Assembly: GCF_027497235.1 (NCBI RefSeq)
Contig: NZ_CP114902.1
Coordinates: 1,811,501-1,875,500, forward strand
Direction of reading: 5' to 3'
Source: Micromonospora sp. WMMD1128
GTDB lineage: Bacteria; Actinomycetota; Actinomycetes; Mycobacteriales; Micromonosporaceae
DNA: 64,000 nt
Numbering within the stretch: the first letter of the stretch is position 1; each line of letters opens with the position of its first letter. The position numbers and the translations under genes were made by a program. Of this stretch, positions 942 through 14,435 are shown one piece after another. The notes below the pieces were generated by a model. The model saw only the letters and a program-made list of their open reading frames with translations, had not been told where the DNA came from and did no database searches.

Positions 942-1024
942 GTTAGGCGGGGGCCCCGCTTAACACCTGGTGTTAAGCGGGGCCCCCGCCTATGCAGAAA
1001 ACGTTAAGCGGGGCCCCCGCCTTA
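942..1024. repeat. 83-bp palindromic interspersed element, copy 1
   Basis: It contains three GC-rich blocks: two form a 24-bp inverted repeat, and a third direct copy (AAGCGGGGCCCCCGCC core) closes the element. A second copy of exactly the same length lies at 27593-27675. Both begin GTTAGGCGGGG-like, end AAGCGGGGCCCCCGCCTTA, and end 35-40 bp before a start codon. Confidence 0.75.
944..992. terminator. 49-nt perfect palindrome downstream of the permease gene
   Basis: Arms at 944-967 and 969-992 pair over 24 bp with a single central base. It could form a very stable hairpin ending permease transcription, but no U-tract follows. It is also the left half of the 83-bp repeated element at 942-1024, so a pure terminator role is uncertain. 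Confidence 0.6.
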
Positions 1025-1064
1025 CACCCTCACCCTGTCGGTGGGGGGAGGCAGAATCGCGTTT

Positions 1065-2750
1065 GTGCGGGTGGTGGCGGTGGTGGCGGTGGTGGCGGGG
1101 GAGCGGGGCGGCGGGACGCTGCAACCGCTCGACGTCGACGGCCGCCCGGCCGGCCCGGCCGAGGAGGTGGCCGACCTGGCCGCCGCCGTCGGTGCCCGCG
1201 AGGCGGCCGAGCGGCCCCGCTGGGTGTGGGCCACCGGCGGGAGCGTCTACCCGGCGTTGCTGCGCGCCGGGATCCGGCTCGACCGCTGCCACGACGTCGA
1301 GCTGACCGAGGCGTTGCTGCTCGGGCACGCGGGCCGTTGGGGAGAGCCGCGCGCGCTGCCCGCCGCCTGGGCCCGGCTGACCGGGGCGCCGGTCCCACCG
1401 GACCCGGCGCCCCGCCCGCCGGAGCCGCCCGGCCACGGCCAGGGCGCGCTCTTCGACCCACCGTCCGGCCCGCCGGGCCCCGGCCTCACGGCATTGACCC
1501 GGGTGTACGCGGACCAGCTCGCCCGGGTCGCGGCGACCACCCACCCCGGCCGGTTCCGGCTGCTGGTGGCCGCCGAGTCGGCAGGTGTCCTGGTCGGCAC
1601 CGAGATGGGCGCGGCCGGCCTGCCGTGGCGCGTCGACGTGCACGACGCGATCCTGGCCGAGCTGCTCGGCGAGGCGTCCCCGGTGGGCGGCCCACCCCGC
1701 CGGCTGGCCGACCTCCAGGCGCGGATCGCCGCCGCGTTCGGCGTACGCCATCTGCACGCCGACTCGCCCGCGGAGCTGTTGCGGGCGTTCGCCCGGGCGG
1801 GGGTGGAGCTGCCGAACACCCGGGCGTGGGTGCTGCGCGGGGTGGAACATCCGGCGGTGCCGCTGGTCCTGGAATACAAGGAGCTCTACCGGATCTGGAC
1901 GGCGCACGGCTGGGCCTGGCGCGACGCCTGGGTGTCCGGCGGCCGGTTCCGTCCGGAGTACGTGCCCGGCGGCGTGGTCTCCGGCCGGTGGGCGACCCGG
2001 GGCGGCGGGGCGTTGCAGATCCCGAAGGTGATCCGGCGGGCGGTGGTGGCCGATCCGGGCTGGACGTTCGTGGTGGCCGACGCCGGCCAGCTCGAACCGC
2101 GGGTGCTGGCGGCGGTCTCCGGCGACCAGCGGCTGGCCGCCGCCGGTGGCGCCGGTGATCTGTACGCGGCGCTGGCCCGGGACGCGTTCGCCGGTGACCG
2201 GACCCGGGCCAAGGTGGCATTGCTCGGCGCGATGTACGGGCAGACCGGCGGCGCGGCGGTGCCGGCGCTGGCGGTGCTGCGCAGGAGCTATCCGACCGCG
2301 TTCGGCTACGTCGAGGCGGCGGCGCGCACCGGTGAGGCGGGTGGGCTGGTCCGGTCGTGGCTGGGCCGCACCTGCCCGCCGGGCGCGGTCGGGTTCGCCG
2401 ACGCGGACGAGGTGGTGCAGGACGGCGAGGCGGATCCGCGTGGCCCGTCGGCGCGTGCGGCCCGCTCGCGGGGGCGGTTCACCCGTAACTTCGTCATCCA
2501 GGCCACCGCCGCGGAGTGGGCCTCGACGCTGCTGGCCACGCTCCGCACGGCGTTGGCCGGCACCGCGGCCGAGTTGGTCTTCTTCCAGCACGACGAGGTG
2601 GTGGTGCACTGCCCGGCCGACCAGGCCGGCGCGGTCGCCGAGGCGGTCACCGCAGCCGGGGAGCGGGCCACCACGCTGTTGTTCGGCGACACCCCGGTCC
2701 GCTTCCCGCTCGACCTGTCCACGGTGGACTGCTACGCGGATGCGGCATAG
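1065..2750 (+). CDS. Bifunctional 3'-5' exonuclease/DNA polymerase-like protein (family A)
   Basis: Family-A DNA polymerase-like protein of about 560 residues, an actinobacterial class much shorter than PolA. The C-terminal half carries motif A as VVADAGQLEPRVLAAVSGD (classical DYSQIELR), motif B as KVALLGAMYGQTGG, and motif C as FFQHDEVVVHC with the HDE metal-binding pair. The N-terminal part is in the position of a 3'-5' exonuclease domain but shows no clear DEDD residues. GTG 1065 is chosen because the protein begins with a beta-strand-like VVAVVAVVAG; GTG 1041 is an alternative. The GTGGTGGCG run at the start is a simple repeat that lengthens this strand. Role is probably repair synthesis (inference). 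Confidence 0.88.
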   Translation: MRVVAVVAVVAGERGGGTLQPLDVDGRPAGPAEEVADLAAAVGAREAAERPRWVWATGGSVYPALLRAGIRLDRCHDVELTEALLLGHAGRWGEPRALPAAWARLTGAPVPPDPAPRPPEPPGHGQGALFDPPSGPPGPGLTALTRVYADQLARVAATTHPGRFRLLVAAESAGVLVGTEMGAAGLPWRVDVHDAILAELLGEASPVGGPPRRLADLQARIAAAFGVRHLHADSPAELLRAFARAGVELPNTRAWVLRGVEHPAVPLVLEYKELYRIWTAHGWAWRDAWVSGGRFRPEYVPGGVVSGRWATRGGGALQIPKVIRRAVVADPGWTFVVADAGQLEPRVLAAVSGDQRLAAAGGAGDLYAALARDAFAGDRTRAKVALLGAMYGQTGGAAVPALAVLRRSYPTAFGYVEAAARTGEAGGLVRSWLGRTCPPGAVGFADADEVVQDGEADPRGPSARAARSRGRFTRNFVIQATAAEWASTLLATLRTALAGTAAELVFFQHDEVVVHCPADQAGAVAEAVTAAGERATTLLFGDTPVRFPLDLSTVDCYADAA

Positions 2751-2875
2751 TCACACAATTTTCCGTTTTGCCCCGCTACCCGGCCGCGAGCGCGCTCGTT
2801 GGGCCCGGTGTGCGTACGACGGGACGGACCGGGCGCTGCTGTGCCCGGTCCGTCCCCCTGGTCGAGGGGGCACCG

Positions 2876-3487
2876 CTGAACCGGATCGCTGCAATGATCA
2901 TCGCCGCTGGTGGGGGCCGCCGCATCGGCGGACCCGAGGCGCTGCTGCACCTGGGCGAGAAGCCGCTGGTGAGCCGGATGATCGACACGATGGCCGACGC
3001 GGGCTGCGCGCAGGTCGTGGTCGTGCTGGGCGCGGCGGCCGAGCAGGTGCGGCGGACCACCGACCTGACCGGCGCCACAGTCGTGGTCAACCGGGCCTGG
3101 GGGACCGGGGTGGGCTCCTCGATCCGGGCCGGGCTGGCCGCGCTCACCGACGACGGCATCGAGGCGGTCGTCGTGGTGCCGGTGGACATGCCCGGGCTCA
3201 CCGCGGCGGCGGTACGCCGGGTGGCCGCGCTGCCGTATCCGGATGCGCTCGTCTGCGCCACCTACGAGGGGTTGCGCAACTATCCGATGCTCTTCGGCCG
3301 CCGGCACTGGCCCGGCATCGCCACGCTGGCGAGCGCCGACGTCGGCGCCCGGCCCTACCTGCTGGCGCACAAGGAGCAGATCGTCGACATCTCCTGCGAC
3401 TCGGTGGCCGACGGCAGCCGGATCGACAGTCCGGAGTTGATGGCGCTCTACGGCCTGTCGGTGCCCGAGCAGCGCATCGGCGCGTGA
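2876..3487 (+). CDS. MobA/MocA-like NTP transferase family protein
   Basis: Small nucleotidyltransferase of the molybdenum-cofactor guanylyl/cytidylyltransferase family: nucleotide-binding start MIIAAGGGRRIGGPEALLHLGEKPL, then VVVVLGAAAEQV and the metal-site strand VVVVPVDMPG. The lysine normally found in the LAAGxSxRxGxxK signature is absent (GGPEALL), so the activity is uncertain. CTG 2876 is preceded at a good distance by GAGGGGG, whereas ATG 2894 has no ribosome-binding site; either may be used. The last 36 codons and the first bases past the stop are duplicated at 8469-8584. It is not in an evident molybdoenzyme operon. Confidence 0.8.
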   Translation: MNRIAAMIIAAGGGRRIGGPEALLHLGEKPLVSRMIDTMADAGCAQVVVVLGAAAEQVRRTTDLTGATVVVNRAWGTGVGSSIRAGLAALTDDGIEAVVVVPVDMPGLTAAAVRRVAALPYPDALVCATYEGLRNYPMLFGRRHWPGIATLASADVGARPYLLAHKEQIVDISCDSVADGSRIDSPELMALYGLSVPEQRIGA

Positions 3488-3495
3488 ATCGGCAG
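3380..3495 (+). repeat. 116-bp direct repeat A (3' end of MobA-like gene)
   Basis: This segment runs from the codons for IVDIS to 8 bases past the stop of the MobA-like gene. It matches 8469-8584 with 9 mismatches and no gaps. Here it is part of the intact gene. Together the two copies bound the 5-kb block 3496-8468. Confidence 0.85.
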
Positions 3496-3496
3496 G

Positions 3497-3706
3497 GCGA
3501 AGCGAACCCACCGATCGCCGTATCCGGTCCAGGACCTCGGCGATCTCCCGGGTTTCCTTGTGGTCCGGCCCGTACGCCAGCGCTAGGTCCTCGTGCATCG
3601 GGACGAGTTCGTCCAGGGCTGGTTCGACGCTGCCCTCGGTGAGCAGAAGCCTGGCGATGTTGCGACGCGGCTCCAGTGCGTCGGGCGACACATCCCCCTC
3701 AGCCAC
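3497..3706 (-). pseudogene. Remnant of a tetratricopeptide-repeat protein
   Basis: Read leftwards from 3706, the translation contains NIARLLLTEGSVEPALDEL and LALAYGPDHKETREIAEVL, which matches the repeat unit of actinobacterial TPR proteins (GPDHPDT-type). Only about one and a half repeats are present. No ATPase or other domain is upstream, and the frame runs without a stop into the antisense of the MobA-like gene. The fragment stops being TPR-like almost exactly at the edge of direct repeat A, so it was probably cut by the rearrangement that created the repeat. Confidence 0.55.
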
Positions 3707-3909
3707 ATTGATCTTGACCGGGCGTGCCCATCGTTACGATTCGACCGTCGACCCGACACCGTCCGCAGTGGTCACTGAACAATCCCAGGTCCGGGGCATG
3801 CTGTGCGGATGACCCAGATGCTGAGGCGCGCCTTGTAGTATGTCGCCAGCAGACGTCACGCGCGCCCTGCGCCTGCGGTGGCGCACAGTGGTCGGCGGTG
3901 GAGGGCTGT
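3707..3909. other. Non-coding stretch upstream of the HIT gene
   Basis: About 200 bp without a convincing gene. It is visibly less GC-rich than neighbouring core genes. TTGACC (3715-3720) followed by TACGAT (3736-3741) resembles a promoter but with only 15 bp between the boxes. Confidence 0.35.
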
Positions 3910-4386
3910 GTGGGACCAGAAGGCACTGAGGGGACCCTTTCCGAAGACTTGTCCCCAGACTGTCTGTTCTGTCGGCAGGATGACGTGCGCCTGAACCGGA
4001 TCTCGCACCGGAACGCGACCTGCTTTGCCCGACTGGACAATTTTCCGGCCTCGGAGGGGCACACCGAGATCGTCCCGAAACGCCACGTGGAGTCGTTCTT
4101 CGATCTGACTGCCGAGGAACTCCGTGATGCCTTCGCGCTGATCTTGGCGGTGCGCGACGAACTGTCCCAACGGTTACGGCCGGAGGGATGGACCATCGGT
4201 GTCAATGAGGGCCGCGCGGCGGGGCGCAGCGTCGACCACCTGCACATTCACCTCATACCCCGCCGATTCGGTGACGTCGAGGACCCAGCCGGCGGCATAC
4301 GGCAGATCCTGCCCAACTGTGATCCGGGCACCTGGCAGGCGGCTACGGACCAGGCGATGAACGAGCGCCATCGGGTGCTGAGCTGA
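3910..4386 (+). CDS. HIT family nucleotide hydrolase/transferase
   Basis: A 158-residue histidine-triad protein. The triad is HLHIHLIPR (His 110, 112, 114), with a CLFC pair at 18-21 and the family-typical NFPASEGHTEIVPKRHV strand near 44-60. HIT enzymes act on nucleotide phosphoanhydride or phosphoramidate bonds (Ap4A, AMP-NH2 and similar); the substrate here is not visible. GTG 3910 is preferred because GGAGGG ends 4 bases before it and gives normal HIT length. A rare TTA leucine codon lies at 4174-4176, suggesting bldA-type control or foreign origin. It converges with the GAF gene, 14 bp away, inside the duplication-bounded block. Confidence 0.9.
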   Translation: MGPEGTEGTLSEDLSPDCLFCRQDDVRLNRISHRNATCFARLDNFPASEGHTEIVPKRHVESFFDLTAEELRDAFALILAVRDELSQRLRPEGWTIGVNEGRAAGRSVDHLHIHLIPRRFGDVEDPAGGIRQILPNCDPGTWQAATDQAMNERHRVLS

Positions 4387-4400
4387 CCGCTCTCAATCCG

Positions 4401-5186
4401 TCAGACGTGCAGGATGCCGTCGTCTCCCAGCAGCATGCACAACGAATTGACCTCGTGCCAGAGTTCGTCGTCGGCGAGGGTGCCGAAGCCGGACGTGGCG
4501 TCCACGCTGACGCAGCCGATGAACTCGCCCCGTCCGTTGCGGATGGGGCTGGCGAAGACGGCACCGCGGTGGCGTACTCGCTGGAACTCCGACCAGGAGA
4601 GGTTCATGACGGCGTCGGCGCCCTCGGAGTCGACGTAGGCGTCATATTCGGCCGCTGTGGTGAGCTTGGCCGCGAGCAACTCGACGTCGACGGCCACCTC
4701 CTCGTTACGCTTCCAGCAGAGTCCGACGACGCCGGCACCGCGACCGGGTTCGAAGGCGCGGGTGGCGGGAGTGCTTCCCAGCCGATAGGTGGCGATGCGA
4801 ACCAGCCGGCGACGAGGGTGCCGCACCGCCCAGGCGATTCGCCACACGTGCAGGCCGAGGTCGGAAGGCGGTGGCTTCGGGTCGATGCGCGCGGCGATGG
4901 CGAGCAGCCGGCCGAAGTGGTTGAGGATCTGATGGCGTACGGCGGTGCGCCGAGCCATTTGGGAGCGCTCGGACCAGACCTGGGCTGGGGTGAGGGCGCC
5001 GAAAGTCGCGATGATGGCCACCAGGAAGGCGATGACGTAGCGGCGGCCACCGAGAATGCTGTTCCAGAACGGGGCGGATGGTACGGAATACTGCTGCGCG
5101 ACCATGACGCACGTCGCGGAAAGCATTATCGCACGGTCGACGATCTTCGCCGTGAGTGGCCCCATGCGACTAACGGTAGAACGCAT
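4401..5186 (-). CDS. Membrane-anchored GAF-like sensor protein
   Basis: About 261 residues with two hydrophobic segments (roughly 19-33 and 50-67), then a basic linker and a C-terminal domain from about 105 to 255 that reads like a GAF fold: GVVGLCWKRNEE early and FASPIRNGRGEFIGCVSVDA late, the latter being the typical GAF core strand. No kinase, cyclase or DNA-binding domain is attached. The start is uncertain: TTG 5192, ATG 5186 or ATG 5165. It is divergent from the HIT-like cassette, so it may sense a small molecule and relate to cassette control (inference). Confidence 0.7.
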   Translation of the reverse strand: MRSTVSRMGPLTAKIVDRAIMLSATCVMVAQQYSVPSAPFWNSILGGRRYVIAFLVAIIATFGALTPAQVWSERSQMARRTAVRHQILNHFGRLLAIAARIDPKPPPSDLGLHVWRIAWAVRHPRRRLVRIATYRLGSTPATRAFEPGRGAGVVGLCWKRNEEVAVDVELLAAKLTTAAEYDAYVDSEGADAVMNLSWSEFQRVRHRGAVFASPIRNGRGEFIGCVSVDATSGFGTLADDELWHEVNSLCMLLGDDGILHV

Positions 5187-5279
5187 GAACAAGCCGGTGA
5201 ACTGATCACAAATATCTAACTGACATCGATCAATGCTACGGTGGATGCGTCCGCTTCACCTTCCGGCACGGAGGTCGGC
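5187..5279. promoter_or_regulatory. Divergent promoter region between GAF gene and HIT-like cassette
   Basis: A short, AT-richer gap between two divergent starts must carry promoters for both the GAF gene and the four-gene cassette. I could not assign -10/-35 boxes with normal spacing. GGAGG just upstream of GTG 5280 supports that start. Confidence 0.45.
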
Positions 5280-5978
5280 GTGGCTGTCACGTCAAGGTGC
5301 AACGGTGCCGAACTGTGCGACGAACTGCGCTCCGCTGACGTCAGCACCTTTACGATGACCTATGAGGGTGACCCGCCCAGCCGGCAGATCGCATCCGTCC
5401 CGGGCTTCCGGCTCATCGCCGACATGTCTCCGCTGACGGTCGGTCACCTGCTGCTGCTGCCCGAGGACCACTATCTCAGCTTCGGGCATCTCGACGCCGA
5501 GCAGTCCGAGCGTGCACGCGCCATCGTCAATGTCCTCCGGCCGCTCTACGTCGCGACCTTCGGGCAGATGGCCGTCTTGGAGCACGGCTCCTCTTCGGAG
5601 ATGCCCTCGGCGTGCATCACCCACGCCCACTGGCATTTCCTTCCGATCGACGCGGCCCGGGCGGCGAACCTGATGGCACGTGACGGGCTGACACGTGTCG
5701 AGTTACCCGACTTCACCGGGTTGCAGCGGTTCGCGGCGGCCGACCGACCCTACTACTACTGCGGCGACGGCAGCACGCACATCGTCTTCGACGCGCAGCG
5801 TCGCGTCCGCAGCCAGTATCTCCGCTCGGTGGTCGGAGCCATGCTCGGCATGGCCGATCCGGAATGGGACTGGTCGGTGGTGATCCGCAAGGACCTCCTC
5901 CGGGCGACGCTGATCGCCACGCAGGGCTGGCAGGAGCGGCTCGTGGGCGGTGTGGCGGCACCGGGCGTACGCGGGTAG
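5280..5978 (+). CDS. HIT-like protein, first gene of the nucleotide-chemistry cassette
   Basis: A 232-residue protein. The histidine triad is THAHWHFLP (His 115, 117, 119), preceded by VLEHGSSS, which resembles the EHG element of HIT proteins, and FRLIADMSPLTVGHLLLLPEDHY, the HIT strand that positions substrate. An extra C-terminal part (GSTHIVFDAQRRVRSQYLR, then MADPEWDWSVVIRKD) makes it longer than ordinary HIT proteins. GTG 5280 is chosen for the GGAGGTCGGC upstream; GTG 5241 would add 13 residues. A TTA leucine codon lies at 5703-5705. It leads three genes with nucleotide or phosphate chemistry; substrate unknown. Confidence 0.85.
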   Translation: MAVTSRCNGAELCDELRSADVSTFTMTYEGDPPSRQIASVPGFRLIADMSPLTVGHLLLLPEDHYLSFGHLDAEQSERARAIVNVLRPLYVATFGQMAVLEHGSSSEMPSACITHAHWHFLPIDAARAANLMARDGLTRVELPDFTGLQRFAAADRPYYYCGDGSTHIVFDAQRRVRSQYLRSVVGAMLGMADPEWDWSVVIRKDLLRATLIATQGWQERLVGGVAAPGVRG

Positions 5979-6043
5979 CCGCGTGTTGGCACCTATGGCA
6001 TACGTTGATGCCGCCCCCGCATCCGGCAGAGGGATTCTCTCGA

Positions 6044-6691
6044 ATGCATCACGGCTTGGCAATCTCTGTGGACGGTCCTAGCGCCAGTGGCAAGACGACC
6101 CTCGCCTACGCACTCGCATCTCGACTGCGCATGCACATGCTCGACACGGGGCTGACCTACCGCGCCGTCGCCTATGCCGCGCTGCGGGAGCCGATCTCGC
6201 CCGGCAGTCCCCTGTTCGAGCTGCTGCGTCATGAGGTGGCGGCACCAGGGGCGCGACCCGCCCTGCCCGCTGTCGTTTACCACGGGGAAGACATCACCGA
6301 CGCCATTTGGTCACCAGAAGTGGAACATCAGTTGCGCGTCATATCCGCCGACCCGGCATGGCGGCACGACATCACCACGCACCATCGAATGATCATAGAT
6401 AGGCACGAGCGCATGATCGTCGTCGGGCGTGACTGCGCCACGGCCGTTATGACGAACGCTGATTGCCACGTGTTTCTCACTGCCAATGAGGCAATCCGGC
6501 GGCAACGCCGTCGCCTCCAATACCGGGCGATGCCCGGTCGCACAGTGAGTGCCGGGCCGGCGACCAGGCTCGACGACGCCACCCGCGAACACGTCAGCAG
6601 CCAGCCGCACGGCCTCGTCCTGGACACCACCTTCCTGTCGACATCCGCCACGGTGAGGGCCGTCCTTCATCATTTGGGAGACCACCGATGA
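6044..6691 (+). CDS. Cytidylate-kinase-like P-loop kinase
   Basis: A 215-residue kinase close in plan to bacterial CMP kinase. The P-loop is DGPSASGKTTL (residues 10-20), followed by LDTGLTYRAVAYAAL, equivalent to the LDTGAMYRA acceptor-site element of Cmk. VVGRDCATAVMTNADCHVFL matches the GRDIGT segment of that family. Housekeeping Cmk usually sits beside der/engA; here it is embedded in an accessory cassette, so a specialised substrate is likely (inference). AGAGGG lies 10 bases before the ATG. The stop overlaps the next start by 4 bases (ATGA), indicating coupled translation. Confidence 0.85.
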   Translation: MHHGLAISVDGPSASGKTTLAYALASRLRMHMLDTGLTYRAVAYAALREPISPGSPLFELLRHEVAAPGARPALPAVVYHGEDITDAIWSPEVEHQLRVISADPAWRHDITTHHRMIIDRHERMIVVGRDCATAVMTNADCHVFLTANEAIRRQRRRLQYRAMPGRTVSAGPATRLDDATREHVSSQPHGLVLDTTFLSTSATVRAVLHHLGDHR

Positions 6692-7809
6692 ATTCCGAAG
6701 CCACCTACTCCGACGAACCGACCCGGGTCGCAATGCTGGTCGGTGCATTCCTCGCCGGTCAGTCCGGCGCCGTCCTCGGCGACGGGCACGGCCCGCACGC
6801 CACCCTGACCGGGGGCGCCGACGCAAGGGACGACTGTGCGGTCTACGAGGTCGACGGCCCGGTCACCCTCGTGGTCGGATCGGACTACGTCCGCGGTCCC
6901 AAGTTCGCCCTCTACGAACAGGGCCTGTTGACGAACTTCGACATCGGCTACTACGTCGTGGCCGCCAACGTCAGCGACGTCGCCGCGATGGGTGCCGCAC
7001 CGATCGGCGTCCTGACCGTCGTCCGCTATCCCCACGACCTCGATGACGACGCCTTCCTCGACATCATGGCGGGCATCAACCAGGCGTGCGCCGACTTCGG
7101 CACCTTGAACGTCGGCGGCGACATCGGCAACGCCGAGCGCATCGTCCTGTCCGCCTCGGCCATCGGCATCTGCCGCACCGGCACCGCCCTGACCCGTCGT
7201 GGTGCCCGACCCGGTGACTATCTGTGTGTCACCGGCCCGTGCGGGGTCTTGGGCGCTGCGGTCGCCTATTTCCCCAAGCGCAGCGCGAACGGTTGGCACC
7301 TGGCCGACGCCCTGGAACAGGACCTTCTGGATGGCTGGCGCCGGCCGCGCGCCCGAGTGGCCGAAGGACGGGTGCTGTCGACCGGTGGCTACGCGACCGC
7401 CTGCCAGGACACGTCCGACGGGCTCAAGGCCACCATCGAGCAGCTCGCTGCCACCAGTCGGGTCGGCTTCGAGGTCACCGAGGACGACATCGCCGTTCAC
7501 CCGGCAGTCAGTGCGGTCGCCAAACTCATCGGCTCCGACGACGTCACCCTCGCGATGAGCGCCTCAGCGGACTTTCAGCTGGCCTTCACCGTTCCCGCCG
7601 ATCGGCTCGACGCCTGCCGGGACGCATTCGCCCGCAACGGCCTGACGTTCGACGTCATCGGCCGCGCCACCGCGCCCGAGTCGGGGGTGGCCTTCGTCGG
7701 CCGCGGCGGCGACCGCCACGCCCTGCCGGGCGTCGCCTGGAAGCATCAGACGACCGACGTCAGCGGCCTCGTCGCCGGAGTCACCGCTCCCACCACCGCC
7801 GCACCGTGA
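6688..7809 (+). CDS. ThiL/AIR-synthase-like ATP-dependent phosphotransferase
   Basis: A 373-residue PurM/ThiL-superfamily protein. The ThiL-like signature is NVSDVAAMGAAPIGVLTVV, followed by GGDIGNAERIVLSASAIG and the second-domain start GARPGDYLCVTGPCG. Members use ATP to phosphorylate small molecules (thiamine phosphate, formylglycinamide, selenide and others). There is no thiamine gene nearby, so thiamine-phosphate kinase activity should not be assumed. It overlaps the kinase upstream by ATGA and the methyltransferase downstream by GTGA, so these three proteins are probably made together and act in one pathway (inference). Confidence 0.85.
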   Translation: MNSEATYSDEPTRVAMLVGAFLAGQSGAVLGDGHGPHATLTGGADARDDCAVYEVDGPVTLVVGSDYVRGPKFALYEQGLLTNFDIGYYVVAANVSDVAAMGAAPIGVLTVVRYPHDLDDDAFLDIMAGINQACADFGTLNVGGDIGNAERIVLSASAIGICRTGTALTRRGARPGDYLCVTGPCGVLGAAVAYFPKRSANGWHLADALEQDLLDGWRRPRARVAEGRVLSTGGYATACQDTSDGLKATIEQLAATSRVGFEVTEDDIAVHPAVSAVAKLIGSDDVTLAMSASADFQLAFTVPADRLDACRDAFARNGLTFDVIGRATAPESGVAFVGRGGDRHALPGVAWKHQTTDVSGLVAGVTAPTTAAP

Positions 7810-8450
7810 CCGTCACCACCACGGCTTGGCCCGGAACCGCTCGAATCCGCCAGTCCTATGCCTCGCTGGCCGAGCAATACACCGCGATGACCGCCAGCTA
7901 CAGCCGGTTTCCCGGACTACAGCAGGAACTGGAGGCGTTCCTCGTCACGCTGCCGGACGGGCCTGTACTGGATCTCGGCTGTGGAGCGGGCCGGGACGCA
8001 CACCTGACGACCGCGACCGGCAGGACGGCCGTCCTCGCGGACGTCACCATCGAACTGCTGACCGCCACGGCAACACGCCTCGCCACGCCGCACGCCGTGT
8101 GTGGGGACGCGATCGCCCTGCCGTTCCGGCAGGCATGTTTCGCCGGCATCATCGCCAGCGGTGTCCTGCTGCACCTGCCCAAGCCCTACACCGCCGCTGC
8201 GCTCACCGGCATCCACCGCACCCTGCGGCCCGGTGGCCGGGCACTGATCAGCATGAAGCACGGAGGCCGGGAAGGATGGCGCACCACGGAGGAGTTCCCC
8301 GCGCCCCGCTGGTTCAGCTACTACGAGCCGGAAGAGTTCGCCGATGCCTGCCGCGCGGTCGGGCTGCGCGTCGTGCACCTGGACAAGAGCACGCGGAAGG
8401 ACTGGTTCACCGCCACGACGGAACGGCCGCCGTCCGGTGGGGGCGGCTGA
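7806..8450 (+). CDS. Class I SAM-dependent methyltransferase
   Basis: A 214-residue methyltransferase. SAM-binding motif I is VLDLGCGAGRDA, an acidic residue follows the second strand (ADVTIELL), then GDAIALPFRQACFAGIIASGVLLHL and LRPGGRALISMKH as in small-molecule methyltransferases. GTG 7806 overlaps the upstream stop (GTGA). This is the last gene of the cassette. Its stop is followed in frame by the 3' fragment of the MobA-like gene at 8469, marking the block's right edge. The methyl acceptor is unknown. Confidence 0.88.
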   Translation: MTVTTTAWPGTARIRQSYASLAEQYTAMTASYSRFPGLQQELEAFLVTLPDGPVLDLGCGAGRDAHLTTATGRTAVLADVTIELLTATATRLATPHAVCGDAIALPFRQACFAGIIASGVLLHLPKPYTAAALTGIHRTLRPGGRALISMKHGGREGWRTTEEFPAPRWFSYYEPEEFADACRAVGLRVVHLDKSTRKDWFTATTERPPSGGGG

Positions 8451-8468
8451 GCCCAGCCCCGCCTCAGC

Positions 8469-8584
8469 ATCGTCGACATCTCCTGCGACGCGGTCGCAGA
8501 CGACAGCCGGATCGACAGCCCGGAGCTGATGGCGCTCTACGGCCTGTCCGTCCCCGAGCAACGCATCGGCGCGTGAATCGGCAG
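8469..8584 (+). pseudogene. 116-bp direct repeat B: orphan 3' end of the MobA-like gene
   Basis: This encodes the last 36 residues of the MobA-like protein (SPELMALYGLSVPEQRIGA plus stop) with no start and no upstream domain. Two residues differ from the intact copy; most other differences are synonymous. The similarity continues 8 bases beyond the stop, so chromosomal sequence was duplicated, not merely a protein motif. It follows the methyltransferase stop by 18 bp. It is best read as the scar of an insertion or recombination at the MobA-like gene. Confidence 0.85.
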
Positions 8585-8618
8585 CGGCTCGCGGCGGTGT
8601 ACATCGGGGCCGAGCCGG

Positions 8619-8951
8619 TCAGGTCGACTTGTCGGCGGGGATCAGGACGCCGCTGCCGGACCAGTTGATGTCCTCGTGCGAGATGGCCTTGTCGGGCTCG
8701 TCCTCCTCGTCCAGTGTGGAGTAGTCGGCGAGGTAGCGGCCGAAGCCGTACCCGCCGGCCTTCAGCGTCGCGAGCGCCCACGGCCGCAACTGGTCGCGCA
8801 GCTTGTCCGGCGCGCGTCGGTCGACCGGCACCCGGACGACGCCGAGCAGGTCGTACCACTCGTCGGCCGTGCCGGCGTCGACCACCCGACAGAGCGAGAA
8901 CGCGTGCCGCACCGGCGGCTCCGGGTCGATCCACGTGACCTGACTGCGCAT
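8619..8951 (-). CDS. Hypothetical protein, 110 residues
   Basis: Not recognised. The start is well supported: ATG 8951 is preceded by AGGAGGCAAC, a strong ribosome-binding site. The protein begins MRSQVTWIDPEPPVRHAFSL, is mixed alpha/beta in feel with an acidic stretch (DEEDEPDK) near residue 83, and has no membrane segment or cysteine motif. It is divergent from the Scr1-type regulator across a 136-bp AT-richer gap, so the regulator may control it (inference). Confidence 0.7.
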   Translation of the reverse strand: MRSQVTWIDPEPPVRHAFSLCRVVDAGTADEWYDLLGVVRVPVDRRAPDKLRDQLRPWALATLKAGGYGFGRYLADYSTLDEEDEPDKAISHEDINWSGSGVLIPADKST

Positions 8952-9087
8952 GTTGCCTCCTCTTGCTCTCGAAACTTCTCGGGCCAGCATCGTCGATGAA
9001 CAAATTTATATCAAGAGACTATTGCCCGGCATGTTTGTCGAGTATGGTCCAGGAAGTTTGCTGATGTGGACGGATGGAGTTCAGACG
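8952..9087. promoter_or_regulatory. Divergent promoter region of the XRE regulator
   Basis: A 136-bp gap between divergent starts with an unusually AT-rich core (around 9000-9020, AAATTTATATCAAGAG) for this chromosome. It probably holds both promoters and an operator for the regulator. No symmetric operator was obvious. Confidence 0.5.
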
Positions 9088-9984
9088 ATGCCGAAGACCG
9101 CGAGCACGTCGCGTAGGTCAACGCCACCGCTTGCGTCGCCGACCGTGCAGGCGTGGGAGCTTGGACTGCGGCTGCGTGAACGCCGGGAGGAAGTGGGAAT
9201 GACGGCGGTCGGGGCGGGTCGCGCCAGCGGCATCACACAGGCATACATCTCGGGCGTCGAAGCCGGGCGGGTGAAGTTGCCGCGCGACCGGCTGGCCCAG
9301 CTCGTCAAGGCATACGAGCTTGATCCATCCGATGCCGCCGAGTTGGAAGAGTTGCGGGTTGCGGCCATGGAGCGGGCTTGGTGGCATCAGTACTCGCAGC
9401 TCTTCCCCGCTGATTTCCTCCGCTTCCTCGGTTACGAGGCGGGTGCCGAGCACGTCCGCAGCTACCACAACGAGCTGTTGCACGGCCTGTTGCAGACCGA
9501 GGAGTACGCCCGCGCGGTCATCCGTGGCGGCAACACCTACGTCCGGCTGACCGAGATGGACCGGCGGGTCGCCGTGCGGATGGCGCGTCAGCGGCGGCTC
9601 GACGGTGACCACCCCCTACGACTGACTGCTGTGATCACCGAAGGTGCACTGCGGCAGCAGGTCGGCGGCGCGCAGGTGATGCGGTCCCAGCTCGACCACC
9701 TGGACCGGCTGTTGACCGAGCGCGCCGAGCAGTTCGAGGTCCGGGTAATGCCGTTCGCCGCCGGAGCGCATCCCGCGCTCGGCGGCCCGTTCCAGATCCT
9801 GTCGTTCCCGTCGCCTCGACTGCCTGACCTTGTCTGGCAGGAGGTGCTCACGTCCAGCGACATCATCGACCAGTCCAGCCGGGTCGCGGACTACGTCGTC
9901 ACCTTCGCCGAGGCGCGGGAGCGGGCGCTAAGCTCGGCGGAGTCGCTGGTGCTGATCCGGCGGATCGCCAAGGAGATGACGTGA
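9088..9984 (+). CDS. XRE-family regulator, Scr1/DUF5753 type
   Basis: About 298 residues. The N-terminal helix-turn-helix (roughly 15-75) has LRLRERREEVGMTAVGAGRASGI and ISGVEAGRVKLP, typical XRE helices. The C-terminal two thirds is DUF5753-like: ERAWWHQYSQLFP, then LLHGLLQTEEYARAVI, ARQRRL and RVMPFAAGAHPALGGPF. These regulators pair with DUF397 proteins, as here. ATG 9088 is chosen because GGAG sits 8 bases upstream; ATG 9064 is possible. The stop overlaps the next gene's start, so the two are co-translated. Confidence 0.92.
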   Translation: MPKTASTSRRSTPPLASPTVQAWELGLRLRERREEVGMTAVGAGRASGITQAYISGVEAGRVKLPRDRLAQLVKAYELDPSDAAELEELRVAAMERAWWHQYSQLFPADFLRFLGYEAGAEHVRSYHNELLHGLLQTEEYARAVIRGGNTYVRLTEMDRRVAVRMARQRRLDGDHPLRLTAVITEGALRQQVGGAQVMRSQLDHLDRLLTERAEQFEVRVMPFAAGAHPALGGPFQILSFPSPRLPDLVWQEVLTSSDIIDQSSRVADYVVTFAEARERALSSAESLVLIRRIAKEMT

Positions 9985-10184
9985 TGGTCGCTCGCCCCGC
10001 CCTCGGCGGTGGGTGGTTCAAGTCCTCCCGCAGCTCGGACAACGCGGCCTGCGTCGAGGTGCGGTTCGCCGGTGGCGCGGTGGACGTCCGCGACACCAAG
10101 GACCGCACCGGCCCGACGCTAGCCTTCGACAGCCGATCCTGGGCCAGCTTCCTGACCGGCCTCAAGGCCGCGTCGGACCGGTAG
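9984..10184 (+). CDS. DUF397 domain protein
   Basis: A 66-residue DUF397 protein: WFKSSRSSDNAACVEVRFAGG, then VDVRDTKD and LAFDSRSWASFLTGLK, which is the entire family signature. AAGGAGA precedes the start and the ATG overlaps the regulator's stop (GTG 9981 possible). DUF397 proteins are the standard partner of Scr1-type XRE regulators and behave like part of a toxin-antitoxin-like switch in Streptomyces. Thirty-three bases of this gene (10053-10085) recur at 14403-14435. Confidence 0.93.
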   Translation: MVARPALGGGWFKSSRSSDNAACVEVRFAGGAVDVRDTKDRTGPTLAFDSRSWASFLTGLKAASDR

Positions 10185-10192
10185 GCCGGGCC

Positions 10193-10435
10193 TTACTCCT
10201 GCACCCAGAACTGCCAGCCGGGCGGTGTGGGCGGCCACGACGGGTCGGGTCGCCAGCTCGACGGAGGTACCCAACCTGCCGGGGGTGAGGGCCAGCCGGG
10301 CGGCACGGCGAACCGCCACCGGGCAGGTGTCCGCCACCTCCTGACCGGCCGAGGACTCCGTGCGTTCAGCCGGACTGCTGCCCCGGGCGGTGGGCGGCGA
10401 GGCCAACGGTCCGGGGGATGTCTGGCATCCGACAT
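10193..10435 (-). CDS. Small PPGW-motif protein or gene remnant
   Basis: The C-terminal half reads FAVPPGWPSPPAGWVPP and then DPSWPPTPPGWQFWVQE, a Pro/Trp-rich motif common at the ends of actinobacterial membrane-associated proteins. The N-terminal half is nondescript and no good ribosome-binding site is seen, so this may be the tail of a decayed larger gene. It ends 8 bp from the DUF397 stop. Nothing else is recognisable in 10185-10509. Confidence 0.4.
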   Translation of the reverse strand: MSDARHPPDRWPRRPPPGAAVRLNARSPRPVRRWRTPARWRFAVPPGWPSPPAGWVPPSSWRPDPSWPPTPPGWQFWVQE

Positions 10436-10509
10436 GCATTGACGCTGGCCGCCGTGTCGGGGCGGTGCGGTGGCTCCCGCCGCTGGCCATGACAGCCCAC
10501 AATGACCCC

Positions 10510-10962
10510 ATGGCAGCAGGTGATCAGACGCGCAGGTGGGCGGCGGTGGTCCTCGTCGGGCTGGTGGGCGCCGGCCTGGGGGCGTTTCTGGCCGTCCAGG
10601 ACCTCGACCGGGCGAACAAGTGGTCCGGCGTGTTCGGGCTGTTCCTCACGCTTGCCGGTGTGGGTCTCTCCGCGTACGGGCTGTTCGGTGCCCGGCGGGC
10701 GGCGGGCGGGCAGTCGGTGGACGACAGTGTCGTCGGTGGCGGGGTGACCCAGGTCCGTGGGGTGCGCGGCGACGTGCGTATCGGCGGGTCCGCACCGGCG
10801 ACCGGGTCGCCGTCCGCGCCGACCGCGCCGCCGCCGTCTGCCGCCGGGATGGGGGCCGGCGGCGTACCGGCCGGGGACGGGCAGTCGGTGACGCGGTCGT
10901 GGGCGGCGGGACCGGTACGGCAGGTCGACGGTGTCGGCGGTGACGTGGACATCGACAGGTGA
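10510..10962 (+). CDS. Small two-helix membrane protein paired with the TPR NTPase
   Basis: About 150 residues. It has two membrane helices (around 11-29 and 38-58), then a Pro/Ala/Gly-rich tail with two copies of a short strand-like motif, TQVRGVRGDVRIGG and RQVDGVGGDVDIDR. The next protein begins with a related element (VVFGDVIQISHVDGGVTV). The start is ATG 10510 (ATG 10489 possible); no strong ribosome-binding site. The TGA overlaps the GTG of the NTPase (GTGA), so translation is coupled. Inference: it anchors or signals for the NTPase through the shared GDV motifs. Confidence 0.7.
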   Translation: MAAGDQTRRWAAVVLVGLVGAGLGAFLAVQDLDRANKWSGVFGLFLTLAGVGLSAYGLFGARRAAGGQSVDDSVVGGGVTQVRGVRGDVRIGGSAPATGSPSAPTAPPPSAAGMGAGGVPAGDGQSVTRSWAAGPVRQVDGVGGDVDIDR

Positions 10963-13900
10963 GCCGTCGGTGGTGTCCGCAACCGGCGGCGGGTCAGGTG
11001 GTGACCGGCAGTGTGGTCTTCGGGGACGTCATCCAGATCTCCCACGTCGACGGCGGCGTCACCGTCATCAGCCCGGATCGACCGCCCTACCGGGTGAGCA
11101 CGGCCGACAGTTCCCCGGTGCCGGTGGGTGTGCCGAAGGCCCGATCGCATCCGAGCTGCCTGTTGCTGGCCCGCCATCAGGTGGTGCCGTTCGCCGGTCG
11201 CGAGCGGACCCTGGACGCGCTGGCCGAGTGGGTGCGCGGTGGCGAGCCGGTCGCGGCGTTGCTGGTCCACGGCGCGGGTGGGCAGGGCAAGACCCGTCTC
11301 GCCGCCGAGGTCACCGCCCGGTGCGCAGCGGCGGGGTGGGCGGCGTGGAAGGTGGTGCACACACCGACCCCGGTGCCCGGGACCGCGCCGGTGTCCCGGG
11401 TCGAGTTACCCGGCGGCGCGGTGCTGGCGGTCGTGGACTACGCCGACCGGTGGCCGGCCTCAGCGTTGTTGGCCCTGCTCATTCAGCTACGGGACCTGCA
11501 CACGCGGACCGGCGCCCGGGTGCGGGTGCTGATGCTGGCCCGCTCGGACGGCTACTGGTGGCCGGCGGTGGCCAACCGGGCCGAGAGCGACCTCGGCATC
11601 GACACCGGTCAGGTGGCGTTGCCGCCGCTGGCCGCCGACAGCGACGACGACCGACTGACGCTGTTCACCACCGCGGCGGCGCGCTTCGCCGCGGCCATGA
11701 ACATCGAGCGGGCCGGCTGGCCGGTACCGGATCTGACCGGGCCCGCCTTCGCGCAGGTCCTGGCCGTGCACATGGCTGCCCTGGCCACCGTCGACGCGAT
11801 TCGGCACGGCGATGTCCCACCCGTACGAGGGGACGCCGTCTCGGCTTATCTGCTGCTGCGGGAGGAGGCGTACTGGCACGAGCTGCGTACCGGACCCGAG
11901 GATCCCTTGACGACCCCGCCCGCGGTGATGCACCGGGCCGTGTACACCGCGACCCTGATCGGGGCCCAGCCCCGATCTGCCGCCCGGCGGGCGCTCAGCC
12001 AGGCCGGGTTTGCCGCCGACAGTGCCGCCGCGGACCGGATCATCGACGATCACACGACCTGCTATCCGCCGACCGACACCCGACTCGTGTTCGAGCCGCT
12101 GCACCCCGACCGGCTCGGCGAGGACCTCATCGCCCTGTCCACCCCGGGCCACGGCGGGCTCACGACCCTGGAGAAGGACTGGGCGCCCATCGCGGTCGCC
12201 GACCTGCTCACCGCCGACGGGCCACAGCTGCCGGCCTGGAGCACGGCCGCGGTCACCACTCTCGTCGAGACCGCACGCCGATGGCCGCACATCGCCACCG
12301 ACGTGCTGTACCCGTTGATCCGTCGCCGTCCCGAGCTGGTTGTCGCCGCTGGCGGGGCCACCCTCACCCGCCTGGCGGCCGTCCCCGACATCGACCCCGC
12401 CATCCTGGAGATCCTCGAACCCCTGCTGCCCCAGGGCCGGCACATCGATCTCGACATCGCCGCCGCCGCGATCACCGGCCATCTCACCCGGCACCGCCTG
12501 GCCCACGCCACCGGCGACGCGGACCGTGCCTGGCTGCACGCCATCCACGCCTGGCGGCTGGCCAACGCCGGGCAACACGTCGCCGCGCTGGCCTCGGCGC
12601 AGGAGGCCGCCGGCGTCTACCGGCGGCTGGCGGAGGCCGACCCGGCCTCCCTGCCTGGCCTCGCGATGTCGTTGAACAACCTCGGCAACCATCTGTCGGG
12701 GGTGGGGCGTCGGGAGGAGGCGCTGGCCCCGACGGAGGAAGCCGCCGGCATCTGGCGCCGGTTGGCGATGGTCAACCCGGCCGCCTACCTGCCGCACCTC
12801 TCGGGGGCGTTGAACAACCTCGGCAACCATCTGTCGGGGGTGGGGCGTCGGGAGGAGGCGCTGGCCCCGGCGGAGGAGGCCGTCGCCATTCGCCGCCGGC
12901 TGGCGGAGGCCGACCCGGATGCCTACCTGCCCGAACTCGCGGGGTCGTTGGCCAACCTCGGTAGCCGGCTGGCGGAGGTGGGGCGTCGGGAGGAGGCGCT
13001 GGCCCGAACGGAGGAAGCCGCCGGCGTCTACCGGCGGCTGGCGGAGGCCGACCCGACCGCCCACCTGCCCGATTTCGCGACATCGCTGCACAATCTCGGC
13101 AACGAGCTGTCGGGGGTGGGGCGGCGGGAGGAGGCGCTGGCTCAGGTCGAGGAGGCCGTGACCATTCGTCGCCGGTTGGCGGAGGCCAACCCGGCCGCCC
13201 ACCGGCCCGACCTCGCGATGTCGTTGACCAGCTTGGGGACTCGCCTGTTGGCGCTGGGACGTCGGGAGGAGGCGCTGGCCCCGGCGGAGGAGGCCGTCAC
13301 CATCCGCCGCCGGTTGGCGGAGGCCAACCCGGCCGCCCACCTGCCCGACCTCGCGACATCGTTGAACAATCTCGGCGTCTTGCTGGCGGAGGTGGGGCGT
13401 CGGGAGGAGGCGCTGGCACTGGCGGAGAAGGCCGCCGGCATCTGGCGCCGGTTGGCGGAGGCCAACCCGGCCGCCCACCTGCCCGACCTCGCGACGTCGT
13501 TGATGAACGTCAGCGAGCGGCTGTCCCAGGTGGGGCGTCGGGAGGAGGCACCGGTCCCGGCGGAGGAGGCTACCGGCATCTGGCGCCGGTTGGCCGGGGC
13601 CAACCCGGCCGCCCACCTGCCCCAGCTCGCCGGGTCGTTGGACAATCTCGGCGTCTTCCTGTCCCAGGTGGGGCGTTGGGAGGAGGCGCTGGTCCCGGCG
13701 GAGGAGGCCATGACCATCCGTCGCCACCTGGCGGAGGTCAACCCCGCCGTCTACCTGTCCCACCTCGCGATCTCGTTGTCCAACCGCGGCGCTCTCCTGT
13801 TCACGGTGGGGTGCCGGGAGGAGGCACTGGCACTGGCGGAGGGGGCCGTCGATGTGTACCGGCGACTGGCGGAGGCCAACCCGGCCGCCCACCTGCCCGA

Positions 13901-14384
13901 CCTCGCGACATCGTTGAACAATCTCGGCGTCCTCCGGTCGGAGCCGGACAAGCGGGAGCAGGCCCTGGCCGCGGCGGAGGAGGCCACTGCCATCCACCGC
14001 CGGTTGGCCGGGGCCAACCCGGCCGCCTACCTGCCCCACCTCGCGATGTCGTTGACCAACGTCAGCGAGCGGCTGTCCCAGGTGGGGCGCCGGGAGGAGG
14101 CGCTGGCCGCGGCGGAGGAGGCCGTGACCATCCGCCGCCGGTTGGCGGAGGCCAACCCCGTCGCCTACCTGCCCTTCCTCGCGAGATCACTGTCGGCGTA
14201 CGCGCGGGTGTGTGTCAGTGTGGATGCCGACATGACCGGGGCCCTGGCTGCGGTCACGGAGGCGGTAGGTCTCTATGAGCCCCTGGCGCGGCAGTTGCCG
14301 CAGGCGTTCGCCGACCATCTGTCCGACGCCCGGCAGATCCGCGCCGACATCATCGGGCGGCTCGGCGGGGAGCCCGAGCACTGA
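10959..14384 (+). CDS. STAND-like P-loop NTPase with eleven TPR units
   Basis: A 1,141-residue protein. Residues 13-38 carry the GDV-type motif shared with the upstream protein. Walker A is HGAGGQGKTRLA (about 104-115), Walker B AVLAVVDYAD (about 154-163) and a sensor-like VLMLARSD. A helical middle region follows to about 530. From codon 12669 there are eleven TPR units of exactly 46 residues (SLNNLGxxLxxVGRREEALAxxEEA plus IRRRLAEANPAAHLPDLA), then a degenerate twelfth. The layout fits STAND NTPases that sense ligands with repeats, as in conflict/defence systems. No nuclease, protease or TIR effector is visible. A TTA codon lies at 11406-11408. Confidence 0.85.
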   Translation: MSRRWCPQPAAGQVVTGSVVFGDVIQISHVDGGVTVISPDRPPYRVSTADSSPVPVGVPKARSHPSCLLLARHQVVPFAGRERTLDALAEWVRGGEPVAALLVHGAGGQGKTRLAAEVTARCAAAGWAAWKVVHTPTPVPGTAPVSRVELPGGAVLAVVDYADRWPASALLALLIQLRDLHTRTGARVRVLMLARSDGYWWPAVANRAESDLGIDTGQVALPPLAADSDDDRLTLFTTAAARFAAAMNIERAGWPVPDLTGPAFAQVLAVHMAALATVDAIRHGDVPPVRGDAVSAYLLLREEAYWHELRTGPEDPLTTPPAVMHRAVYTATLIGAQPRSAARRALSQAGFAADSAAADRIIDDHTTCYPPTDTRLVFEPLHPDRLGEDLIALSTPGHGGLTTLEKDWAPIAVADLLTADGPQLPAWSTAAVTTLVETARRWPHIATDVLYPLIRRRPELVVAAGGATLTRLAAVPDIDPAILEILEPLLPQGRHIDLDIAAAAITGHLTRHRLAHATGDADRAWLHAIHAWRLANAGQHVAALASAQEAAGVYRRLAEADPASLPGLAMSLNNLGNHLSGVGRREEALAPTEEAAGIWRRLAMVNPAAYLPHLSGALNNLGNHLSGVGRREEALAPAEEAVAIRRRLAEADPDAYLPELAGSLANLGSRLAEVGRREEALARTEEAAGVYRRLAEADPTAHLPDFATSLHNLGNELSGVGRREEALAQVEEAVTIRRRLAEANPAAHRPDLAMSLTSLGTRLLALGRREEALAPAEEAVTIRRRLAEANPAAHLPDLATSLNNLGVLLAEVGRREEALALAEKAAGIWRRLAEANPAAHLPDLATSLMNVSERLSQVGRREEAPVPAEEATGIWRRLAGANPAAHLPQLAGSLDNLGVFLSQVGRWEEALVPAEEAMTIRRHLAEVNPAVYLSHLAISLSNRGALLFTVGCREEALALAEGAVDVYRRLAEANPAAHLPDLATSLNNLGVLRSEPDKREQALAAAEEATAIHRRLAGANPAAYLPHLAMSLTNVSERLSQVGRREEALAAAEEAVTIRRRLAEANPVAYLPFLARSLSAYARVCVSVDADMTGALAAVTEAVGLYEPLARQLPQAFADHLSDARQIRADIIGRLGGEPEH
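12669..14186 (+). repeat. Eleven tandem 138-bp units encoding the TPR array
   Basis: The coding sequence is an uninterrupted tandem array with period exactly 138 bp. Several units share long near-identical stretches (for example around 13309-13375, 13447-13505 and 13866-13925), suggesting recent duplication or gene conversion. Confidence 0.85.
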
Positions 14385-14402
14385 TGCCGTCCCGGCGCGA
14401 CC

Positions 14403-14435
14403 GTCGAGGTGCGGTTCGCCGGCGGCGCGGTGGAC
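14403..14435 (+). pseudogene. DUF397 gene fragment
   Basis: Thirty-three bases match 10053-10085 of the DUF397 gene with one mismatch and encode VEVRFAGGAVD. No start, serine-rich N-terminus or C-terminus remains. The fragment begins 18 bp after the NTPase stop. The remainder of 14385-14572 holds nothing recognisable. Confidence 0.55.

What the first reader, a model, noticed from the sequence alone, without database searches (positions are those of the whole stretch)
5280..8450. Unrecognised four-gene cassette: HIT-like, CMP-kinase-like, ThiL-like, methyltransferase
Three of the genes overlap start-to-stop by 4 bases, so the products are probably made in fixed ratio. The families act on nucleotides or phosphorylated small molecules, yet none sits in its housekeeping setting (no thiamine, purine or der/cmk neighbours). 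A small kinase, an ATP-dependent PurM-fold enzyme, a HIT transferase/hydrolase and a methyltransferase would suffice to build, activate and methylate a nucleotide-like compound. I know of no described pathway with this set. This is my main candidate for an undescribed system.
Basis: partly seen in the sequence, partly recalled or inferred. Interest (0 to 1): 0.78.

Follow-up and report, generated by a model that had tools for sequence, protein, structure and literature searches.

The report
Transferable six-gene nucleotide-chemistry cassette

Summary
But the set is incomplete: a second HIT protein (H2, 3724-4386 +) and a probably membrane-anchored protein without Pfam, PADLOC or PDB match (X, about 4401-5165 -) belong to it. 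In 25 distinct ThiL-like loci the partners occur as HIT1 22 (1 weak), X 21, H2 21, methyltransferase 20 (4 weak), CMP-kinase-like 17 (10 weak). In 70 control ThiL loci only H2 occurs, once. Of 80 Amycolatopsis genomes the same 9 carry ThiL-like and X. In the window the block lies between two copies of the 3' end of a core gene, at an insertion hotspot, and is the lowest-G+C 5 kb of the window. It is neither the housekeeping ThiL nor the housekeeping Cmk. Best guess: it makes or turns over a phosphorylated, methylated nucleotide-like molecule, with X as membrane receptor or effector. The unit is shown; chemistry and role are inferred. Seven literature searches for such a set found no description.

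The parts
3380..3495 (+). 3' end of the core MobA-like nucleotidyltransferase gene (frame 2516-3487); left copy of a 116-nt direct repeat
   Evidence: 92% identical to 8469-8584; query 2850-3495 matched in 121 of 121 genomes of the genus at E<=0.001, three of them (G763, G784, G734) only weakly
3724..4386 (+). H2: HIT-family protein with HLHIH motif; the true start may lie further in, since most relatives align from about residue 62 on
   Evidence: PF01230 E 7e-21; present in 21 of 25 loci
4401..5165 (-). X: probably membrane-anchored (family-average hydrophobic stretches near residues 12-33, weak, and 42-75, strong, then about 190 further residues); no Pfam above cut-off, no PADLOC or PDB match; a few records call relatives 'GAF domain-containing'
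   Evidence: single-sequence hydropathy shows only the second stretch, and the profile test against GAF was negative; the ORF runs to a TTG at 5192 but relatives of 254 aa favour the ATG at 5165; 21 of 25 loci
5280..5978 (+).
   Evidence: (profile also reaches CWF19-like protein 1, E 0.002); fused to ThiL-like in P0099; 22 of 25 loci
6044..6691 (+). K: CMP-kinase-like P-loop kinase with shortened lid
   Evidence: PF02224; alignment; 17 of 25 loci, 10 of them weak
6688..7809 (+). T: ThiL-like (PurM-superfamily) ATP-dependent enzyme, a clade of its own
7806..8450 (+). M: SAM-dependent methyltransferase with DLGCGAGRD motif
   Evidence: 16 of 25 loci at E<1e-20, 4 more weak; alignment
8469..8584 (+). 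right copy of the MobA 3'-end repeat (last 35 codons, stop and 8 nt), closing the inserted block
3496..8584 (.). inserted cassette block (5,089 nt repeat-to-repeat)
   Evidence: 67.2% G+C (3496-8468) vs 73.1% median of 5-kb stretches, the lowest of the window; not found after MobA in the relatives mapped

Best explanation
A six-gene cassette (H2, X, H1, K, T, M) that is gained and lost as one unit. Most likely mechanism: K and T each add a phosphate to a monophosphorylated substrate (K a nucleotide-like one; T in the manner of ThiL, phosphate onto phosphate). M methylates the compound. H1, the near-constant partner of T, transfers or hydrolyses a nucleotidyl group in the same pathway, and H2 probably cleaves the product or a by-product. 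The product stays in the cell and is bound by the soluble domain of the membrane-anchored X, which acts as receptor, effector or immunity partner. Shown: composition, linkage, co-occurrence, insertion or loss as a block, and conserved catalytic residues in T and the HIT proteins. Inferred: substrate, order of steps, the place and role of X, and the biological purpose (signalling or conflict, as opposed to a secreted product). My confidence in the unit itself is about 0.95; the number below is for the mechanism.
For: Partners in 25 distinct T loci: H1 22 (1 weak), X 21, H2 21, M 20 (4 weak), K 17 (10 weak); in 70 other ThiL loci: H2 1, the rest 0. In a clustering of all called ORFs of 11 loci these six are the only families shared by more than two loci. 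Same 9 of 80 Amycolatopsis genomes carry T and X. H1-T fusion. Distances of the six genes correlate, r 0.79-0.95, no permutation of 1000 as high for any of 15 gene pairs, though common descent alone would give this too. In Amycolatopsis the synonymous divergence of the six genes exceeds that of six flanking genes in 18 of 18 genome pairs, 1.8 to 3.3 times: the block has a history or rate of its own. Metal/ATP aspartates of T kept in all 18 members aligned. HIT histidines of H1 invariant in 41. K keeps the residues that PMC3603445 gives for phosphate and cytosine contact (Arg41, Arg110, Arg131, Asp132; Tyr40 is Tyr or Phe). X lies in one run with T (and M) in Streptomyces, Amycolatopsis and Lentzea.
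Against: No product, activity or phenotype is known. At most 4 of 89 flanking ORFs match a defence model at 1e-10, so the loci do not look like defence islands. K is missing from 8 of 25 loci, among them four otherwise complete ones (L004, L005, L007, L010); M is weak or absent in Streptomyces; one genome (G248) keeps T alone. The steady ratio of synonymous divergence can be read as weaker codon selection in these genes and so does not prove exchange between strains. In K of the Micromonospora/Streptomyces type the position of Ser101 of E. coli Cmk (its role recalled, not looked up) is Arg/Lys, so CMP itself may not be the substrate.
Confidence: 0.35

Rival explanations
1. A miniature biosynthetic cluster for a nucleoside- or phosphate-type natural product that is exported, with X as self-resistance or export helper.
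For: Actinobacterial hosts; kinase, methyltransferase and HIT chemistry; sporadic distribution. Among flanking ORFs there are four MFS transporters and one cyclodipeptide synthase, though not at a shared place.
Against: No exporter, regulator or scaffold-building enzyme is shared by more than two of 11 loci. Flanks differ between lineages and look mostly metabolic in the 25 of 69 families shown. No paper with such a cluster found.
Confidence: 0.25
2. Accessory coenzyme metabolism: T is a second thiamine-phosphate kinase (or acts on a thiamine analogue) and the cassette salvages, repairs or modifies thiamine-like diphosphates.
For: T passes NCBIfam's thiL equivalog cut-off (200.7 vs 184.15 bits), and many relatives are named thiamine-phosphate kinase. 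In Amycolatopsis group 2 thiG lies within about 3 kb of K in L112 and L113; in L112 a thiO-like oxidoreductase gene and thiE stand between, and in L113 a TMP-TENI protein is next to K.
Against: A housekeeping ThiL is present. T forms a separate clade, 100/99 support, with a changed substrate-side loop (own ThiL STDVLVEGRHF, T GSDYVRGPKF). The only TPP riboswitch in 8 loci precedes the thiO-like gene of L112, none lies at a cassette. Thiamine genes were found by one lineage only.
Confidence: 0.2
3. An anti-phage defence system with a nucleotide-derived signal and X as membrane-active effector.
For: Patchy presence of T: 3 of 160 (one without partners), 9 of 80 and 5 of 392 (one a fragment) genomes of three genera; insertion at a hotspot that also holds a TPR/AAA_16-like gene; probable membrane anchor of X.
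Against: PADLOC finds no known component, only weak or generic matches (M to mad2 E 1e-10, H2 to ThsC E 2e-8, K to VakA E 2e-4). Flanks are poor in defence genes: at most 4 of 89.
Confidence: 0.15
4. Chance neighbourhood of housekeeping paralogues.
For: The enzyme families are common.
Against: Co-occurrence, controls and fusion.
Confidence: 0.02

Closest known systems
ThiL, thiamine-monophosphate kinase (PurM superfamily)
   Same: Fold family, ATP/metal aspartates, passes the NCBIfam thiL cut-off
   Different: Own clade, changed substrate-side loop and Gly to Ser at 293, HIT partner, no TPP riboswitch at the cassette in 8 loci
Cytidylate kinase Cmk
   Same: PF02224, P-loop, phosphate- and base-contact residues mostly kept
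   Different: Below the cmk equivalog cut-off; shortened lid and Arg/Lys at the Ser101 position in the Micromonospora/Streptomyces type; extra to the housekeeping Cmk
HIT / CwfJ-DcpS branch
   Same: HxHxH motif, profile matches to HINT proteins and CWF19-like protein 1
   Different: Conserved C-terminal extension; conserved N-terminal cysteines; tied to a ThiL-like enzyme
Nucleotide-signal immune systems (CBASS, Pycsar, Thoeris; compared from memory)
   Same: Nucleotide enzymes together with a probable membrane protein, patchy distribution
   Different: No PADLOC component such as a cyclase or TIR synthase among nine proteins scanned, flanks not defence islands
Gemmatimonadetes HIT-ThiL pair beside a TCAD9 protein (locus L011)
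   Same: Overlapping H1-like and T-like genes
   Different: No X, H2, K or M found; a second ThiL-like gene and a TCAD9/APH-like protein instead

Membership tests
ThiL thiamine-phosphate kinase | Scores above the curated thiL model cut-off | tested here: met
   200.7 vs 184.15 bits
ThiL thiamine-phosphate kinase | Catalytic/metal aspartates of the family | tested here: met
   D48, D49, D66, D97, D145, D241, D244 in all 18 members aligned
ThiL thiamine-phosphate kinase | Groups with housekeeping ThiL proteins | tested here: not met
   21 cassette rows apart from 29 others, 100/99; the comparison set is mixed, not all proven ThiL, and several rows have long branches
ThiL thiamine-phosphate kinase | Thiamine operon or TPP riboswitch control | tested here: not met
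   one TPP riboswitch in 8 loci, before the thiO-like gene of L112; thiamine genes near the cassette in one lineage only
ThiL thiamine-phosphate kinase | Phosphorylates thiamine monophosphate | not testable with these tools
   needs enzyme assay
Cytidylate kinase | Above the cmk equivalog cut-off | tested here: not met
   108.8 vs 135.55 bits
Cytidylate kinase | Base- and phosphate-contact residues | tested here: inconclusive
   Arg41, Arg110, Arg131, Asp132 kept; Tyr40 Tyr or Phe; Ser101 position Arg/Lys in 7 of 17 kinases and Ser in the 10 of Amycolatopsis/Lentzea (Ser101 role recalled)
HIT superfamily | HxHxH active-site histidines | tested here: met
   invariant in 41 H1 sequences; present in the 10 of 21 H2 sequences printed
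GAF domain (X) | Profile similarity to GAF | tested here: not met
   hhalign probability 0.2% with a small GAF set; no GAF among the families matched by 42 members; label 'GAF domain-containing' in a few records
Known anti-phage defence system | Signature protein of a PADLOC system | tested here: not met
   weak or generic matches only
Known anti-phage defence system | Location in defence islands | tested here: not met
   at most 4 of 89 flanking ORFs at 1e-10; the 89 were chosen from 157 listed; no matched random control
Known anti-phage defence system | Protects against phage | not testable with these tools
   needs phage challenge
Natural-product biosynthetic cluster | Exporter and scaffold enzyme in the conserved unit | tested here: not met
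   only the six families are shared by more than two of 11 loci

The most novel reading that the evidence does not exclude
The cassette is a complete make-and-sense circuit: H1, the ThiL-like enzyme, the kinase and the methyltransferase build a new methylated nucleotide-type second messenger, H2 degrades it, and X is the founding member of a new family of membrane receptors or effectors. It would be a new class of transferable signalling or immune system of multicellular actinobacteria.
Probability: 0.22. Interest if true: 0.88.

Novelty: categorically new. Interest (0 to 1): 0.62.

Why it matters
A compact, recurrent gene set built around a ThiL-like enzyme that databases label 'thiamine-phosphate kinase', in a genome that already has a ThiL, points to unrecognised chemistry. 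If the product is an intracellular signal it would add a second messenger and a receptor family; if a secreted compound, a minimal nucleoside-type pathway. Either way the automatic annotation of this clade is doubtful, and X (183 relatives at E <= 0.001; none of the 120 listed has a Pfam domain) is a new protein family with a defined biochemical context.

Tried and rejected
Rejected or weakened: chance association (controls). Carriage by phages or plasmids: no plasmid match for T at E 1e-40 or X at E 1e-5; six phage records with ThiL-like matches of 29-30% identity only; for X, 12 pattern matches in viral contigs, none confirmed; X was not searched in the phage collection. A TPP-regulated thiamine operon and a defence island are not supported. 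The idea that X is a GAF sensor was tested and not supported. My first impression that K keeps the whole cytosine pocket had to be weakened: the Ser101 position is Arg/Lys in 7 of 17. I looked for thiamine-monophosphate contacts in PMC6416309 (passages), but the passages seen do not list them. G721 carries a second piece of the MobA 3' end 88 kb away; I first took it for the end of a large element, but the sequence next to its full MobA gene is shared with the window, so I do not claim that. I first read the excess synonymous divergence in Amycolatopsis as proof of exchange at a fixed site; pair by pair the ratio is steady, 1.8-3.3 in 18 of 18 pairs, close pairs included, so a faster synonymous rate is an equally good reading and I no longer call it proof. 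The repeat and the G+C contrast make insertion likely, but I recognised no integrase in the block and cannot name the mechanism. The 89 flanking ORFs scanned came from 15 of 20 loci and 157 listed ORFs. The control ThiL set (70 loci) has a median locus length of about 15.6 kb and some are short. Locus duplicates dropped before counting: L012 (= L108) and L111 (= L008), taken as the same by equal contig length.
Full report
What is there. The last three are joined by ATGA and GTGA overlaps. Family searches confirm the assignments. The genome holds its own housekeeping ThiL (C1:4927558, 31% identical) and Cmk (C1:3836288), so both enzymes here are extra.

The unit is larger. A 116-nt direct repeat (92%) brackets positions 3496-8468. 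Its left copy is the end of a MobA-like nucleotidyltransferase gene; a 646-base query from that gene matched in 121 of 121 genomes of the genus, in three of them only weakly. Between the repeats lie two more genes: H2 (3724-4386 +) and X (4401-5165 -). The block has 67.2% G+C, the lowest 5-kb stretch of the 64-kb window (median 73.1%).

It is an insertion at a hotspot. For the 29 relatives that matched MobA best, about 1.5 kb on each side was fetched. In 11 (L128, L129, L131-L137, L139, L145) MobA is joined within about 100 nt to sequence that matches the window only from about 14,480 on, or later in the same downstream block. In one (L130) it is joined to 10,477, so the cassette is missing there while the TPR gene is present. 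In 5 (L138, L140-L142, L151) a spacer of about 0.9 kb intervenes, and in 12 nothing of the downstream block lies within 1.5 kb. Longer stretches were fetched from 20 genomes, 12 of them among the 29. There the next block shared with the window (16,083 on) begins about 10 nt after MobA in L178 and about 50-70 nt in L169 and L177; in five (L163, L166, L172, L179, L180) it was not found in about 10 kb. I recognised no integrase in the block.

It is conserved. I collected 25 distinct loci with a close ThiL-like relative: 17 places from whole-genome searches and the 10 best of 80 genome-contig loci, less two duplicates. Within the fetched stretches, H1 is found in 22 (1 weak), X in 21, H2 in 21, M in 20 (4 weak) and K in 17 (10 weak, E above 1e-20; Pfam confirms Cytidylate_kin in the two of these tested, L006 and L008). 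The 70 remaining contig loci, which carry other ThiL-like genes, serve as controls: H2 in 1, the others in 0. In an ORF clustering of 11 loci the six are the only families shared by more than two loci. Four arrangements occur: H2> <X H1> K> T> M> (window, G701); H1> K> T> X> <H2 (Streptomyces, with a weak M on the far side in three of five); H1> T> X> M> <H2 <K (Amycolatopsis, Lentzea); and H2> <M <X H1> T> without K (Actinomadura, Nonomuraea, Nocardia). Misses: G248 has T alone; Streptomyces sp. ERV7 keeps a fragment of T between genes that flank the full cassette in S. melanogenes; the Ktedonobacteria and Gemmatimonadetes loci have only an M-T and an H1-T pair, both weak. In Actinokineospora H1 and T are one protein.

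It is rare and travels together. T was found in 3 of 160 genomes of the window's genus (probably Micromonospora, judging by the names of the nearest proteins), 5 of 392 Streptomyces (one a fragment), 9 of 80 Amycolatopsis, 5 of 298 sampled from the order, and 1 of 396 sampled from the phylum, that one being the window's own genome (E limits 1e-40 to 1e-60). X was found in 2 of 160 and 9 of 80: the same nine Amycolatopsis genomes, and two of the three Micromonospora ones. Distance matrices of the six genes correlate at r 0.79-0.95. In Amycolatopsis, in two chromosomal settings, the mean synonymous divergence of the six genes is 0.60-0.89 against 0.19-0.39 for six flanking genes (6 genomes) and 0.41-0.59 against 0.12-0.37 (3 genomes), with dN/dS of 0.14-0.39 in the cassette. 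The excess holds in 18 of 18 genome pairs (1.8-3.3 times). It stops at the borders of the six genes in the clearest alignments (for example L090-L109), but in other pairs one alignment runs through cassette and flank. Either diverged versions are swapped at a fixed site or the six genes have a faster synonymous rate; the steady ratio fits the second at least as well.

The parts. T keeps the metal/ATP aspartates of the superfamily but forms its own clade with 100/99 support, and its substrate-side loop differs. K keeps the phosphate- and base-contact residues listed in PMC3603445 (passages seen), apart from Phe for Tyr40 in some. In the Micromonospora/Streptomyces type it has a shortened lid and Arg/Lys at the position of Ser101, whose role I recall and did not look up. 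H1 is a HIT protein whose profile reaches HINT proteins and CWF19-like protein 1, the latter including part of its C-terminal extension. X has a strong and a weak hydrophobic stretch near its N-terminus and many invariant polar residues in the remainder, but no recognised domain (best DUF2428 at E 0.002, which I take as chance). The 'GAF' label in some records is not supported by my profile test, which used a small GAF set and a shallow X profile.

How it may work. Two kinases of different folds, two HIT proteins and a methyltransferase fit the making and breaking of a phosphorylated nucleotide-like compound. X is encoded in the same run as T, or divergently from H1, and is as constant as H2 and nearly as constant as H1, which suggests that it acts on or responds to that compound at the membrane. 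I prefer an intracellular compound because no exporter is part of the shared set. Whether the purpose is signalling, defence, competition or an unusual coenzyme is open. Against defence: at most 4 of 89 neighbouring ORFs match a defence model, and no component is known to PADLOC. For a thiamine link: the NCBIfam cut-off is met and one Amycolatopsis lineage has thiamine genes close by. Against it: no TPP riboswitch at any of 8 cassettes searched and the presence of a housekeeping ThiL.

Novelty. Seven searches of the open paper library for combinations of these families returned nothing on such a cassette; one search listed one kinase-classification paper, of which I saw the listing only. led to PMC7159879, in which the terms ThiL, AIR synthase, HIT domain, TCAD9, cytidylate and PurM do not occur. 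Most subscription literature is not held, so 'undescribed' means not found here. I rate the composition as categorically new because I know of no described system that has it, while stressing that the function is unproven.

Noticed in passing
window 3488-14480: Hotspot for variable DNA between the core MobA-like gene and the downstream genes across the genus; the spacer runs from about 10 nt to more than 10 kb.
   Followed up: partly
window 10052-10085 and 14402-14435: 34-nt direct repeat (97%) flanking the TPR/AAA_16-like gene 10959-14384, perhaps DUF397-type coding remnants (by eye), suggesting a second inserted or duplicated block.
   Followed up: no
window 12507-14186: TPR protein with eleven copies in a 138-nt (46-aa) repeat ladder, 63-82% identical at DNA level to the reference copy; matches to G782 are many-to-many, so the array may expand and contract.
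   Followed up: no
L158:4978-10114 (G721): A 151-nt piece of the MobA 3' end lies beside what look by eye like McrB- and McrC-type restriction genes, 88 kb from the intact MobA gene.
   Followed up: partly
L011:4475-9062: Gemmatimonadetes locus with two ThiL-like genes, a HIT gene overlapping one of them, an unassigned 206-aa protein and a TCAD9 (ternary complex associated domain) protein.
   Followed up: partly
L008, L090-L092, L109, L110 and L112-L114: At two Amycolatopsis sites the six cassette genes show 1.8-3.3 times the synonymous divergence of their flanks in every pair; exchange or a faster rate is undecided.
   Followed up: partly
window 942-1025: Three similar palindromic copies around GTTAAGCGGGGCCCCCGCC in tandem after the transporter gene, terminator- or repeat-element-like.
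   Followed up: no
P0005 and P0007: Two proteins of the ThiL-like clade in Micromonospora endophytica share the same longest-contig length, suggesting two copies in one genome.
   Followed up: no
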